From Haloplasma contractile (GTDB taxonomy: Bacteria; Bacillota_I; Bacilli_A; Haloplasmatales; Haloplasmataceae), in contig JAENYC010000001.1 in assembly GCA_016841945.1 (NCBI GenBank), positions 186,001-250,000 on the forward strand: a DNA stretch of 64,000 nucleotides. Reading direction: 5' to 3'. Positions 58,682 through 64,000 of the stretch are shown here, piece after piece; position 1 is the stretch's first letter, and each line of letters starts with the position of its first letter. The position numbers and the translations under genes are program-made. The notes under the pieces are model-generated. The model was given only the letters and a program-made list of their open reading frames with translations, had not been told where the DNA came from and ran no database searches.

Positions 58682-58875
58682 ACAATAAGTGCCGAACTAG
58701 TACGAAGATTTATAAAATTAATCCGAACATCTTATAATAAGGAAGTTGGGTATACTTTATTCCGTGTTGAAAGCCCACTTTAAGTGGGAATCCTGAAGAA
58801 TGAGTCGAAACTTCCACCTGCACATAACGCGGGTTAAACACCTTAAATCTACGGCTAGTTGGGCCTTATTCTATA
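58682..58875 (+). ncRNA. ssrS: 6S RNA (Firmicutes type)
   Basis: RNA polymerase-binding regulatory RNA of about 195 nt. The two ends pair in a long closing stem (AATAAG...AACTAG near 58684 against CTAGTTGGGCCTTATT near 58855). Internal features recall the Firmicutes 6S core: GCCCACTTTAAGTGGG hairpin, then CCTGAAGAATGAGTCGAAAC, and CACCTGC...GCGGGTT, the counterpart of the conserved 3' hairpin of E. coli 6S. Position next to aspS agrees with bsrA in B. subtilis. It is convergent with aspS and divergent from the AI-2E gene. Assigned from memory of family features, without an Rfam search. Confidence 0.82.
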
Positions 58876-58931: not shown

Positions 58932-60686
58932 TTATTTTTGTAATTTTATATGTAACTCGTCTAATTGTTTCCTATCAACTGGCGATGGTGCCTTAGTCAT
59001 CAAACTAGCCGCTGATAAAGTTTTTGGAAAGGCGATAACATCTTTAATATTATCTGTATTAACGAGTATCATAATGATTCTATCTAGTCCAAGCGCAATA
59101 CCTCCATGAGGTGGTGTACCATATTTAAAAGCATCGATTAAAAATCCAAATTGTTGATAAGCCTCTTCTTTAGTAAAACCTAATGTTTCAAACATTTGAT
59201 TTTGTATATCAGCTTCATGAATTCTTATTGAACCTCCACCAATTTCATGTCCATTTAAAACCACATCATAGGCTTTTGCTAAACATTTATTTGGTTCATT
59301 CTTTAAATATTGAATTGATTCCTCTTTAGGTGCTGTAAAAGGATGATGTGCTGCATAATAGCGTTTGTCTTCCTCGTCATATTCAAATAATGGCCAATCT
59401 ATAACCCATAAGAAATCGTATGTATCTTGAGGAATTAAATCCATCTCTTTAGCGATTAATTTTCTAAGGGCACCTAATGCTTCACAACTGACATCAAACT
59501 TATCAGCAACAAATAGGATTATATCATTATTTGTTATAGCTAGTTGTTCTATAAGTGCATTTCTTTCTTCTTCATTTAAAAATTTATTAATTGGGCCTGA
59601 AAACTCATTTTGATTATATTTTAAGAATGCCAAACCTTTGGCATTATATTTCTTCACAAATTCTGTTAACCGATCAATTTCTTTACGTGAATATTGTTTT
59701 GCTCCACCTTTAACATTGATTGCTCGTACATGACCACCATTTTTGATAGTATTAGAAAAAACAGAAAATGCAGATGATTTAAAGACCTCATTTAGTTCAA
59801 CAAGCTCCATCTTAAAACGTCTATCTGGTTTATCACTACCATAGCGTATCATCGCTTCATAATATGTCAATCTGTCAAATGGTACTTTAATATTAACTTC
59901 TTTGATTTCTTTCATTACCTTAACAAACAAGTTTTCAACGATGGTTTGAATTTCTTCTTCTGTTAGAAAAGAAGTTTCAATATCAACTTGAGTAAACTCA
60001 GGTTGTCTATCCGAACGTAAATCCTCATCCCTAAAACACTTTGCGACTTGATAATAGCGTTCAAGTCCAGCAATCATACACAATTGTTTAAATATCTGTG
60101 GAGATTGAGGTAGGGCATAGAATTCATGGGGGTGTATGCGAGACGGTACTAAATAGTCTCTTGCACCTTCTGGGGTTGATTTTGTAAGAATAGGTGTTTC
60201 TATTTCAATGAAATCTAAATCACTTAAATAATTCCGAATTATTCTCGTCACATTTGACCGAAGTATGATATTCTGCTGCATCTTGGGTCTTCTTAAATCA
60301 AGATAGCGATACTTTAATCTCGTATCTTCTAATGCATCAGTTTCATCTTGAATCATCATTGGCGTCGTTTCTGCTTTAGAAATAATGTCTAAATCAATGA
60401 CTTTTACTTCTACTTCACCAGTCTGTAAATTAGGATTTTTACTTTCTCTTTCGACTACGATTCCTTTTACATAAATAATATATTCATTCCGTATCTTTTC
60501 AGCTTTTTCATAAATAGATAAATCAACCTCTTCTGGATTAACAACGACCTGAGTAATGCCATAACGGTCACGTAAATCAATAAAAATAATGGTTTTATTT
60601 CGTATTTTTGAAACCCAACCTTTTAACTCAACGGTTTCATTAACATGTCTTAGACGTAATTCATTATTATGATGTGTCCTATTCAT
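58932..60686 (-). CDS. aspS: Aspartyl-tRNA synthetase
   Basis: Class II synthetase, 584 aa, bacterial type. OB anticodon domain (VELKGWVSKIRNKTIIFIDLRDRYG, about 19-43), catalytic motif 2 region FRDEDLRSDRQPEFTQVDIE (about 215), the bacterial insertion (GAD) domain (about 285-410) and motif 3 GIALGLDRIIMIL (about 530). ATG at 60686 (with another at 60689) follows GGAGGATT inside the end of hisS, so the two genes overlap by 8 nt and are translationally coupled. Discrimination between Asp-only and Asp/Asn charging is not attempted. Confidence 0.97.
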   Translation of the reverse strand: MNRTHHNNELRLRHVNETVELKGWVSKIRNKTIIFIDLRDRYGITQVVVNPEEVDLSIYEKAEKIRNEYIIYVKGIVVERESKNPNLQTGEVEVKVIDLDIISKAETTPMMIQDETDALEDTRLKYRYLDLRRPKMQQNIILRSNVTRIIRNYLSDLDFIEIETPILTKSTPEGARDYLVPSRIHPHEFYALPQSPQIFKQLCMIAGLERYYQVAKCFRDEDLRSDRQPEFTQVDIETSFLTEEEIQTIVENLFVKVMKEIKEVNIKVPFDRLTYYEAMIRYGSDKPDRRFKMELVELNEVFKSSAFSVFSNTIKNGGHVRAINVKGGAKQYSRKEIDRLTEFVKKYNAKGLAFLKYNQNEFSGPINKFLNEEERNALIEQLAITNNDIILFVADKFDVSCEALGALRKLIAKEMDLIPQDTYDFLWVIDWPLFEYDEEDKRYYAAHHPFTAPKEESIQYLKNEPNKCLAKAYDVVLNGHEIGGGSIRIHEADIQNQMFETLGFTKEEAYQQFGFLIDAFKYGTPPHGGIALGLDRIIMILVNTDNIKDVIAFPKTLSAASLMTKAPSPVDRKQLDELHIKLQK

Positions 60687-61959
60687 CATAATCCTCCATT
60701 CTACATTTAATTTCTTTTTCCACATTATGAATACTGATAACATCTTGTATCTGTGTTTTCATATTCTTAATACTTATCTGCTCATTATTTAGTTCTTCTT
60801 CACCAATAATAATGGTAAATTTAGCATTTAGTTTATCCGCTTGTTTAAATTGAGCTTTAACCTTACGATTAAAATAATCTTTCTCTGATTTAATATAATT
60901 TTTTCTTAATAATTCTAATAATTTAAAGGCATAAATCTCTGTTTTATCTGAAGTTGAAACAATATAAACATCAACTTCATCTTTGGTATCAATGGTGATT
61001 TCTTCAGCTTCAAGCGCTAGTATTAAGCGGTCCATTCCGAAGGCAAAACCCATGCCTGGTACATCAGGACCTCCTATTTCTTCTACTAATCCATTATATC
61101 GCCCACCACCACCAAGAGCATTTTGACTTCCAAATCCAGGCACATAAGTAATGACTTCATAGACTGTATGATTATAATAATCTAGGCCTCTTACTAAACT
61201 ATGATCAATTTCATACTCAATTCCAAGTTGTTCTAAATCCTCTAGTACATGTTTAAAAAATGCTTTAGAATCCTCATTTAGATAATTTGACATCATAGGA
61301 GCAGTCTTCATCGCTTTGTGTGCTTTATCTACTTTACAATCTAATATTCGAAGCGGATTTTGTTCGAGTCTTTTTTGACAATCTTCACATAATTCTTCTT
61401 TAACTGGTTTAAAATGATCGATTAAGGCTTGTCTATATTGTTTTCGACTTTCCTTATCCCCAAGGGTATTAATCAATACTTTTACTTTTTTTAAACCTAA
61501 TTGTCTAAATATATTGACTGATAATGCAATAACTTCTGCATCAACAGATGGATCATTACTTCCAATGGCTTCAACACCAAATTGATGAAACTGCCGACTT
61601 CTCCCTTTTTGCATTCGTTCATAACGAAACATTGGTCCCATATAATACAATTTTGTCAACTGATTTAAATCAGCATATAATTTATGCTCAACATAACTTC
61701 GTACAACACAAGCGGTCCCTTCAGGACGTAACGTGATTGAACGATTTCCTTTATCTTTGAAGGTATACATTTCTTTTGTGACAATATCTGTACTTTTACC
61801 AACACCGCGTATAAATAAATCAGTACTTTCAAATATCGGGGTTCTTATCTCTTGATAATTATATAATTCACATGTCTTTCGTATAATAGATTCTAGATAA
61901 TGCCATTTATGAATATCACTTGGTAAAATATCATAGGTTCCTTTGGCAGTTTGAATCAT
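60679..61959 (-). CDS. hisS: Histidyl-tRNA synthetase
   Basis: Class II synthetase, 426 aa. Start ATG 61959 (AAAGGAG 9 nt upstream). Motif 1 region RTPIFESTDLFIRGVGKSTDIVTKEMY (about 39-65), motif 2 LYYMGPMFRYERMQKGRSRQFHQFGVEAIG (about 105-134), HisA box LVRGLDYYNHTVYEV (about 255) and motif 3 GMGFAFGMDRLILAL (about 305). The anticodon-binding domain follows. First gene of hisS-aspS under the T-box leader. Confidence 0.97.
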   Translation of the reverse strand: MIQTAKGTYDILPSDIHKWHYLESIIRKTCELYNYQEIRTPIFESTDLFIRGVGKSTDIVTKEMYTFKDKGNRSITLRPEGTACVVRSYVEHKLYADLNQLTKLYYMGPMFRYERMQKGRSRQFHQFGVEAIGSNDPSVDAEVIALSVNIFRQLGLKKVKVLINTLGDKESRKQYRQALIDHFKPVKEELCEDCQKRLEQNPLRILDCKVDKAHKAMKTAPMMSNYLNEDSKAFFKHVLEDLEQLGIEYEIDHSLVRGLDYYNHTVYEVITYVPGFGSQNALGGGGRYNGLVEEIGGPDVPGMGFAFGMDRLILALEAEEITIDTKDEVDVYIVSTSDKTEIYAFKLLELLRKNYIKSEKDYFNRKVKAQFKQADKLNAKFTIIIGEEELNNEQISIKNMKTQIQDVISIHNVEKEIKCRMEDYDE

Positions 61960-61980
61960 CAATATCATCTCCTTTATATT

Positions 61981-62183
61981 AAAAAAAAAGTCCTTAGAAA
62001 AATTCTAAGGACGCATATTTACGCGGTACCACCCTAGTTGCTTATATATAGCCAACTTAAAAATGTATATCTCCAAAGTGTCATTCACTAACTCATTTGT
62101 AGGAGCTTACAGCCTAAGACTCCATTCTCTAAAAACAAATTGGTTTAGTTACTCTTCTTTATCATCGATTCATATTCATTATC
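61981..62183 (-). promoter_or_regulatory. T-box riboswitch of hisS-aspS
   Basis: Leader that reads tRNA charging. The T-box core AGGGTGGTACCGCG lies at 62035-62022. The terminator GTCCTTAG / CTAAGGAC plus nine T is at 62012-61981. In stem I, the 5' AGTA loop-E element is followed by ACTAA, which pairs with TTAGT at 62091-62087; next comes the specifier-loop strand GAATGACACTTT. Alignment with the known glyQS loop (GAA-N-codon-A) gives GAC (Asp, 62082-62080) as specifier, overlapped by CAC (His, 62080-62078). The discriminator-pairing base after TGG is T. Confidence 0.93.
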
Positions 62184-62315: not shown

Positions 62316-64000
62316 TCACTCATATAGTAGTCCTACTGTGGGTAATGGATTACTAATTGGAGAAAACAATTCTTCAGCTAATCCTTTTAATCTAATATCC
62401 TCAACAAGCACATCTCGTATATATAATTCTGTATCTATATTTTGATCACTTCTAATATTATCTAATTGATCCCAATAATAAACATAACTGATGACAGCTA
62501 CAGTATAGGTCGATGAATCATTTAGATTTATATCAGCTGCCAATGAATAAAAAATAGAGTTATTATTGAGTAATGATTCAATTTCTTGATATGTCACTTC
62601 TATTAAATAAATATTGTTGTCGAAAGGACAGATTTCATACAATTGATTAAGGGTTACATCTCCACCTGCGGTGATTTCACCAGTTGAACGAATACCACCG
62701 GTATTGTGAATTGCAATATCAGCGCCTGTAGTCGCTAACATGACATTTCCAACCCAATCAAATAATTGACTATAATAAGTAATGGTTTCTCCAGCTGTTG
62801 CGAGTACTTCATTTCCTAAATTTGCTCTAAATCCATCAATAATCCCTTCAACCGTTGGATCATAATTTGTACCAGCTGAGGATACATTTGATGATATCTA
62901 CTGTAGAGTTTATAACCTCCATCGTGTCTAGCCCAATTGTTAATGTAACTTCTCCAAAAGCTGCTCCATTTCCACCCGCCTGTATGACTGGCATCGGTGT
63001 TCCATCGATACGATTTATTGATTCTTCATAATAAGAGTGTGTATGACCATTAATCACAACATCGACCAAATAATCTCCATATTGATCTCTTAACGTAGAG
63101 AGTTGGTAATTGGTGTTTGTGTCAAATCCATGTATATTGACAACAATCACATCAACACCTGTTTGTACTAACTCATTTCCTATTTGTTCTACAGATTGAG
63201 AAATATCTAAATCAAAATAGTAATCATCAACTTTATCATATGCGATAGAATTATATGTATCTCCGATATAACTGATAATTCCTACTTCAACTCCTTCTTT
63301 CTCAATAACAACTGAATTTAGGACATCTCCTCCTGGCTCTGTTAATAATGAATCATCATCAATTGAATAAATATTGGCATTAAGTAGTGGAAAATCTGCT
63401 TCATCATTTGTCTCTACTTCATCAAAATAATCTATTATGGTATCTATTTCCCAATCAAATTCATGATTACCTATACCCATTGCATCAAATTGCATCGCAT
63501 CCATACTTTCAATTACAGCCAAACCATTTGTCATATTAGAAATTGCAGTCCCTTGTAACATGTCACCATTTCCAATTAACACAACATCATCTAAAGGATT
63601 TTCATCTCTTATTTTATTAATTAAATAGGCCATATTAGACAACCCGTTCATACCATATTCATCTTGTTCGATATAACCATGAAGATCGTTCACAGATAAT
63701 ATGGTTAATGGAAACGTATCATATTCCGTTTCTTCATAGACATCAGTTACTAATATGTTAAAATATTTAGTACTGTCGCCACTGACATATAATACATAAC
63801 CTTCAACAGTAATTGTATCTCCTATTAAATTATTTAATCCTAAACTTGTATCATCGGTATTCAATGAACCGACAACATCAGTTTCAGGAACATCTAAATT
63901 AAGGTAATTTCCACTTTGGGATAAACTGCCTGTTAACCTCACACATTCTCCTACCAAAAAATTATTTACATATGTGGTTACTTCGCTACCACTTAACTCA
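62316..64000 (-). pseudogene. YhcR/5'-nucleotidase-like extracellular protein, frameshifted, 5' end outside window
   Basis: The minus strand enters the window in frame. An OB-fold-like YhcR domain comes first (GECVRLTGSLSQSGNYLNLD to about 63730), then a metallophosphatase domain with LSVNDLHGYI, LIGNGDMLQG, GIGNHEFDWE and INGHTHSYYE, and after the frameshift a 5'-nucleotidase C-terminal domain (TGADIAIHNTGGIRSTGEIT, PFDNNIYLIEVTYQEIESLL). At about 62887-62898 the frame changes by +1: reading runs from NSTVDII into a stop 10 codons on, while the next frame continues as SNVSSAGTNYDPTVEG without a break to 62316. One extra base is the simplest cause. Family members hydrolyse nucleotides at the cell surface. 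The C-terminus has no visible anchor. Confidence 0.75.

What the first reader, a model, noticed from the sequence alone, without database searches (positions are those of the whole stretch)
62070..62095. T-box specifier loop reads GACAC: Asp and His codons overlap ahead of hisS-aspS
Seen: alignment of the specifier strand GAA-T-GAC-A with the well-known glyQS layout gives GAC (Asp). The next two bases make an overlapping CAC (His), and the operon encodes both synthetases. Known: T-boxes that serve two tRNAs through overlapping codons have been described for another operon. Against it: the base after TGG in the antiterminator bulge is T, which can pair with G73 of tRNA-Asp but not with the usual C73 of tRNA-His, and the last C of CAC falls in the lower helix. 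Asp-only reading with fortuitous overlap is therefore a real alternative.
Basis: partly seen in the sequence, partly recalled or inferred. Interest (0 to 1): 0.5.

Follow-up and report, generated by a model that had tools for sequence, protein, structure and literature searches.

The report
Aspartate T-box ahead of hisS-aspS
This is an ordinary RNA switch that most likely senses uncharged aspartate tRNA and controls two tRNA-charging enzymes; the histidine codon that overlaps its aspartate codon is probably a by-product of how such switches are built, not a second sensor.

Summary
A T-box leader lies on the minus strand (62174..62004) ahead of hisS-aspS. Its specifier is GAC (62082..62080), followed by AC, so CAC (62080..62078) overlaps it.

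The dual-sensor reading is not well supported. The A is the T-box family's usual stacking purine; the C is the top base of the lower Stem I helix. In T-boxes of other genes with NNC specifiers an overlapping CAY arises in 18 of 31. Among 158 GAC-type hisS-aspS leaders 42 have no His codon, and CAY changes state at least 16 times on the HisS tree. The base after UGG is C or U in 157 of 158, fitting G73 of tRNA-Asp; CAC-type T-boxes of his genes carry A or G in 12 of 14. Against this, the window's own phylum keeps CAY in 31 of 32 leaders.

The GACAC string and the dual-sensing idea for hisS-aspS leaders are already in print (credited to Gutierrez-Preciado 2009, not readable here). So: new member of a known kind, most likely Asp-only.

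Side result: in 58 of 217 leaders the specifier is AAC. In one clade (Planococcaceae and Lysinibacillus, 20 leaders) AAC goes with UGGA, which fits neither tRNA-Asn nor tRNA-Asp but is common in His T-boxes, and all 20 keep CAY.

The parts
62004..62174 (-). T-box leader of hisS-aspS (Stem I, Stem III, antiterminator); no room for Stem II/IIA-B
   Evidence: RF00230, 85.4 bits, E 3.4e-19, model 1-219 with 40 model positions skipped; one of 17 T-boxes found in the genome
62157..62160 (-). 5' strand AAAG of the lower Stem I helix
62150..62156 (-). 5' side of the specifier loop, AAGAGUA with the AGUA motif
62079..62086 (-). 3' side of the specifier loop, GAAUGACA
62080..62082 (-). specifier codon GAC (Asp), at the standard place
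62078..62080 (-). overlapping CAC: C of GAC, the conserved purine A62079, and helix base C62078
62075..62078 (-). 3' strand CUUU of the lower Stem I helix
62037..62056 (-). Stem III (GUUG ... CAAC)
   Evidence: read by eye; Rfam alignment
62025..62031 (-). antiterminator bulge UGGUACC; N = U at 62028 faces the tRNA discriminator base
   Evidence: alignment
61981..62012 (-). intrinsic terminator GUCCUUAG...CUAAGGAC plus U run; its 5' arm overlaps the antiterminator 3' arm
60679..61968 (-). hisS (histidyl-tRNA synthetase); start ATG at 61968 or 61959
   Evidence: ORF; PF13393 2.7e-43
58932..60743 (-). aspS (aspartyl-tRNA synthetase), longest ORF; true start probably near 60686 (inference)
   Evidence: ORF; PF00152 1.2e-125

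Best explanation
It is a class-typical transcriptional T-box riboswitch that senses uncharged tRNA-Asp. The anticodon pairs with GAC (62082..62080), A62079 stacks on that duplex, and the tRNA's 3' GCCA end pairs with UGGU in the antiterminator bulge, using a G73-U wobble. This holds the antiterminator against the terminator at 62012..61981 and lets hisS-aspS be read through; charged tRNA-Asp lets the terminator form. The overlapping CAC follows from T-box grammar (NNC specifier, then purine, then pyrimidine helix strand), and its third base sits in the lower Stem I helix. Shown here: anatomy, codon, fit of the discriminator base, variation among relatives. Inferred: tRNA binding, antitermination, and lack of a response to tRNA-His.
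For: Codon, loop and antiterminator are at the standard places. tRNA-Asp G73 in this genome, 3 copies read, fits N = U; N = C in the 7 other leaders of the family. Of 158 GAC-type hisS-aspS leaders N is C in 79, U in 78, A in 1, G in 0. 42 of the 158 lack CAY: next bases AA 8, AG 4, C 16, G 5, T 9; the share is alike in machine-read (79 of 108 with CAY) and hand-read leaders (37 of 50). CAY changes state at least 16 times among GAC leaders, 18 over all 217. CAY occurs in 18 of 31 other-gene NNC T-boxes; 116 of 158 against that has Fisher p = 0.13, not corrected for relatedness. In this genome 4 of 5 other NNC T-boxes also have it (ATC, AAC, TAC, TTC followed by AC; TAC-AA does not), two of the five read by eye. 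The Rfam consensus itself reads uuc-a-C. The third His base pairs in 111 of 112 re-read leaders: G-C 72, A-U 35, C-G 3, G-U 1. Opening that pair in the window costs 3.0 kcal/mol. CAC-bearing T-boxes of his-type genes have N = A 8, G 4, U 1, C 1 of 14.
Against: In the lineage of the window CAY is kept far more than in the other-gene set: 30 of 31 GAC leaders from its family and phylum, Fisher p = 0.0005 against 18 of 31, although these leaders are related and the comparison set comes from other, partly less AT-rich genomes (AT content not measured). In that sample the one leader without GAC (L047, GGC) keeps CAC. The 3 kcal/mol could be paid by codon pairing. The unconstrained lowest-energy folds do not show the standard Stem I (-15.7 free against -15.4 standard), so the structure rests on the family model. 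The pairing count is biased because the parser asks for a helix. I have no binding or expression data for this leader.
Confidence: 0.82

Rival explanations
1. Dual-specificity T-box: GACAC is read by tRNA-Asp in the standard frame and by tRNA-His two bases further on, after the top pair of the lower helix opens, so that either shortage raises both synthetases.
For: The operon encodes both enzymes. GACAC is kept in 8 of 8 family leaders and CAY in 31 of 32 leaders of the phylum sample. Overlapping codons are established for the C. acetobutylicum Asn/Glu T-box (Saad 2013, as described in PMC4052509). A two-structure model for hisS-aspS is in print (PMC4342826).
Against: 42 of 158 GAC leaders have no His codon, e.g. 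7 of 10 named Paenibacillus leaders. N = U does not fit C73 of tRNA-His; N is C or U in 32 of 32 leaders of the phylum sample, whereas CAC-type T-boxes carry A or G in 12 of 14. The third base is paired. CAY is common after NNC specifiers.
Confidence: 0.13
2. The leader is degenerate or not functional as a switch.
For: Its Rfam score, 85.4, is below the gathering score of 93.
Against: The core parts and the terminator are present; three other T-boxes of the same genome also score below the cut-off; loop and N are maintained in 8 of 8 family leaders.
Confidence: 0.04

Closest known systems
hisS-aspS T-boxes with GACAC in the specifier loop (Gutierrez-Preciado et al. 2009, MMBR; paper not held, known here from passages of PMC5313534 and PMC4342826)
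   Same: Same operon, same GACAC string. PMC5313534 reports that the authors suggested it mainly interacts with tRNA-Asp; PMC4342826 reports a suggestion of two alternative structures sensing both tRNAs.
   Different: No difference in kind. This leader has no room for Stem II, and its UGGU would pair by wobble where its 7 family relatives have UGGC.
Two-codon T-box of the C. acetobutylicum transamidation operon (Saad et al. 2013; read only as described in PMC4052509)
   Same: Overlapping codons in one specifier loop, operon serving two amino acids.
   Different: There both tRNAs are reported to bind. Here the second codon is not maintained in 42 of 158 GAC-type relatives and does not fit the antiterminator base.
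CAC-bearing (His-type) T-boxes of his biosynthesis and transport genes
   Same: Same family and fold; CAC present.
   Different: There CAC sits at the standard place in most (2 of 14 were offset in the machine parse) and N is A or G in 12 of 14; here the standard place holds GAC and N is U.

Membership tests
T-box leader (RF00230) | covariance-model match with Stem I, Stem III and antiterminator | tested here: met
   85.4 bits, E 3.4e-19, full length; below gathering score 93
T-box leader (RF00230) | intrinsic terminator that excludes the antiterminator, ahead of an amino-acid gene | tested here: met
T-box leader (RF00230) | UGGN can pair with the NCCA end of the tRNA named by the specifier | tested here: met
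   UGGU with GCCA of tRNA-Asp, G-U wobble
T-box leader (RF00230) | response to uncharged tRNA | not testable with these tools
   needs an in vitro or reporter assay
Two-codon (dual-specificity) T-box | two overlapping codons in the specifier loop | tested here: inconclusive
   GAC and CAC are there as letters, but the last C is placed in the helix, not the loop
Two-codon (dual-specificity) T-box | both codons maintained among homologous leaders | tested here: not met
   CAY in 116 of 158 GAC leaders, at least 16 changes on the tree; but in 31 of 32 leaders of the window's own phylum sample
Two-codon (dual-specificity) T-box | antiterminator base compatible with both tRNAs | tested here: not met
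   U fits G73 (Asp) but not C73 (His, read in genomes of the same genus and family; not found in this genome)
Two-codon (dual-specificity) T-box | binding of both tRNAs | not testable with these tools
   needs binding or antitermination assays
His-specific T-box | CAC at the standard specifier place | tested here: not met
   GAC is there

The most novel reading that the evidence does not exclude
The hisS-aspS T-box is a natural record of specificity switching through an overlapping codon. An Asp sensor (GAC-A-Y, N = C/U) became an Asn sensor in Bacillaceae and Staphylococcus-like lineages (AAC, N = C/U), and in Planococcaceae and Lysinibacillus (AAC-A-Y with UGGA, 20 of 20) the overlapping CAY is read by tRNA-His, so that there the hidden His codon has become the working specifier. 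For the window this would make GACAC an Asp sensor one step away from His sensing.
Probability: 0.25. Interest if true: 0.62.

Novelty: new member of a known kind. Interest (0 to 1): 0.3.

Why it matters
It bears on a question on which the accounts in print differ: whether one T-box senses both tRNAs for hisS-aspS. The comparison favours Asp (or Asn) for most lineages and points to one clade where a His response would be worth testing. It also gives a caution: in T-boxes a CAY after an NNC specifier is common from architecture alone and is weak evidence of a second codon.

Tried and rejected
Rejected: dual Asp/His reading as the main explanation, for the reasons given. Rejected: His-only reading (GAC holds the standard place and N = U). 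Considered: that the weak Rfam score means decay; three other T-boxes of this genome also score below the cut-off.

Led nowhere: one search used a wrong spacing and gave no tRNA-His. (DNA search for tRNA-His) rang in none of 3 genomes, including one that has the gene (G307), so it is no evidence of absence. One search used too strict an E-value (1 of 249 genomes) and was repeated as with a looser one and another group of genomes. One search was a first parse, replaced. Paper searches gave mostly unrelated papers. In one search the T-box mentions were in the reference list only.

Rows dropped before the count of 217: loci L135-L224 were skipped, because the hisS leaders seen among them repeat leaders held elsewhere; 19 had no T-box motif in the stretch held (two of these cut short, ten with only about 675 bases held upstream); 5 could not be parsed. 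By eye, three of those five, L099, L102 and L109, read GACAC; L270 was marked a repeat of another leader; L124 is unclear. Leaders with identical last 300 bases were counted once. One of 218 (L321) had no aspS found. 75 of the 217 loops were read by eye, 142 by the script. Other-gene set: 209 T-box matches in ten genomes; I held 90 loci from them, from which 71 rows were read, 67 after taking out 4 hisS leaders, 36 with an NNC specifier, 31 after taking out 4 CAC rows and one repeat (three of the loops set by hand).

Full report
What is there. The feature lies on the minus strand. Rfam's T-box model matches 62174..62004 with 85.4 bits and E 3.4e-19, full length but under the gathering score of 93. 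It is one of 17 T-boxes found in this genome, four of which are under that score. Read 5' to 3' on the minus strand: lower helix AAAG (62160..62157), AAGAGUA, the upper part of Stem I, then GAAUGACA (62086..62079), lower helix CUUU (62078..62075) and GGAG. Stem III follows soon after, with no room for Stem II. The antiterminator bulge is UGGUACC with N = U at 62028, and the terminator is at 62012..61981. Downstream are hisS and aspS. The specifier by position is GAC (62082..62080); CAC is 62080..62078. The unconstrained lowest-energy folds of the leader do not show this Stem I, so the structure rests on the family model.

Does the overlap mean anything? The two bases that complete CAC each have another job. 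A62079 is the purine directly 3' of the specifier; a review calls it conserved and gives its stacking as the reason (PMC7583486, passages). C62078 is the top base of the lower helix: of 112 hisS leaders re-read by machine it pairs in 111, as G-C 72, A-U 35, C-G 3 and G-U 1 (the parser asks for a helix, so this leans towards pairing). In the window's Stem I, opening this pair costs 3.0 kcal/mol. The Rfam consensus itself reads uuc-a-C at this spot. In T-boxes of other genes, taken from ten Bacilli genomes (90 of 209 matches held), 31 have an NNC specifier other than CAC, and 18 of them show a CAY overlap (L202 counted once). In this genome 4 of 5 other NNC T-boxes do so (two of the five read by eye). 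The overlap is therefore a common by-product.

What do relatives show? I gathered hisS upstream regions from the window's family and phylum, from named genomes and from a spread of the class of a Neobacillus genome. After removing duplicates and unreadable cases, 217 leaders stand ahead of hisS with aspS downstream (dropped rows are under Tried and rejected). The specifier is GAC in 158, AAC in 58 and GGC in 1. Of the 158 GAC leaders, 116 continue as CAY and 42 do not: next bases AA 8, AG 4, C 16, G 5, T 9. The 42 include 7 of 10 named Paenibacillus leaders (GACCU, GACUU; the other three are GACAC or GACAU), Exiguobacterium (GACCC), Aneurinibacillus (GACAA), Aliibacillus (GACGC) and one of two Oceanobacillus (GACGU). 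On a HisS tree (FastTree) the CAY state changes at least 18 times over all leaders and 16 times among the GAC ones. The difference from the other-gene T-boxes, 116 of 158 against 18 of 31, has Fisher p = 0.13, without correction for relatedness.

Split by source, the 32 leaders from the window's family and phylum are GAC 31 and GGC 1; CAY is present in 30 of the 31 and in the GGC one (L047), that is 31 of 32, against 86 of 127 GAC leaders from elsewhere. 30 of 31 against the other-gene 18 of 31 has Fisher p = 0.0005, again uncorrected. Kinship and AT-rich sequence may explain it, but I did not test that; the exception in this group is GACAA (L046). N is C or U in 32 of 32, which keeps the fit to G73.

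Which tRNA fits the antiterminator? tRNA-Asp of this genome has G73 in the 3 copies read and tRNA-Asn has G73 in the one read; tRNA-His has C73 where I read it: G005, G007, G304 (gene ends before CCA), G366, G301, G441 and the Planococcus genome G307. Its gene was not found in the window's own genome. The 158 GAC leaders have N = C 79, U 78, A 1, G 0, as expected for G73. T-boxes with AAC ahead of asnA (own L007, named by NCBIfam, and 22 of the 30 loci; the other 8 gave no T-box) have N = C or U in 23 of 23, and CAY in 7 of 23. CAC-bearing T-boxes have N = A 8, G 4, U 1, C 1 of 14: 11 from the 29 new loci, which were drawn by similarity to the hisZ-like protein of L154, plus L154 and two in L174; the tandem L163 is left out, and in two of the 14 (L477, the second of L174) the machine parse puts CAC off the standard place. 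Of the eight hisZ-like proteins checked (L154 and seven) all match hisZ models best, six of them below the curated cut-off of TIGR00443; L174 and L163 stand ahead of what look to me like amino-acid transport genes (named by eye). N = U in the window thus fits tRNA-Asp and is unusual for a His T-box.

Side result. The 58 AAC leaders fall into two kinds. In 38 (Bacillaceae, Staphylococcus-like and a few others) N is C or U, which fits tRNA-Asn; four of these have no His codon (AACAA in L277 and L278, AACGC in L338 and L339). In 20, neighbours on the tree (named members: Bhargavaea, Sporosarcina, Kurthia, Planococcus, Lysinibacillus; Planococcaceae is my name for the group, the listing says Caryophanaceae or Bacillaceae), N is A and CAY is present in 20 of 20. 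tRNA-Asn and tRNA-Asp have G73 in both genomes of this group that I read (G307, G366), so UGGA fits neither, while UGGA is common in His T-boxes. The geometry says Asn, the antiterminator says His. I keep the His reading of that clade as the most novel reading not excluded.

What is known. Passages of PMC5313534 say that hisS-aspS T-boxes characteristically hold GACAC and that Gutierrez-Preciado et al. 2009 suggested it mainly interacts with tRNA-Asp. Passages of PMC4342826 say that the same work suggested two alternative structures sensing both tRNA-His and tRNA-Asp. That paper is not held, so I rely on these accounts, which differ. PMC7927825 (passages) calls the hisS-aspS T-box of S. aureus a histidine T-box. 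Overlapping codons serving two tRNAs are reported for the C. acetobutylicum Asn/Glu case (Saad 2013, as described in PMC4052509, passages). The T-box database examines frames -1, 0 and +1 and sets discriminator matching aside for His (PMC7778990, passages). PMC9413887 (passages) treats His T-boxes of histidine genes. In the listings of searches and the passages read I saw no paper on AAC specifiers ahead of hisS-aspS, but the two main comparative papers were not read (one not held, the other not looked up), so I make no claim that it is new.

Verdict. The leader is a new member of a described group, most likely sensing tRNA-Asp alone. The His codon is best explained as a by-product of T-box architecture; its near-constancy in the window's own phylum leaves a dual reading open at about one in eight.

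Noticed in passing
58687..58869 (+): 6S RNA (RF00013, 77.6 bits) lies just downstream of aspS, on the opposite strand.
   Followed up: no
62316..63957 (-): A 5'-nucleotidase-like protein appears as two ORFs in different frames: metallophosphatase domain (62860..63957) and 5_nucleotid_C domain (62316..62741), suggesting a frameshift or assembly error.
   Followed up: partly
L065, L070, L071, L227, L230 and 15 others (hisS-aspS leaders): One clade with Planococcus, Sporosarcina, Kurthia, Bhargavaea and Lysinibacillus combines an AAC specifier with UGGA in the antiterminator, which fits neither tRNA-Asn nor tRNA-Asp.
   Followed up: partly
L056, L060, L233, L277 and others: In Bacillaceae and Staphylococcus-like genomes the hisS-aspS T-box specifier is AAC (Asn) with N = C or U, implying control of hisS-aspS by tRNA-Asn.
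   Followed up: partly
L047, upstream of hisS: One draft genome has GGC in place of GAC in the hisS-aspS T-box while the overlapping CAC remains.
   Followed up: no
L041, L043: Some related hisS-aspS T-boxes have a very short Stem I and lie about 600 bases ahead of hisS, perhaps with another gene between.
   Followed up: no
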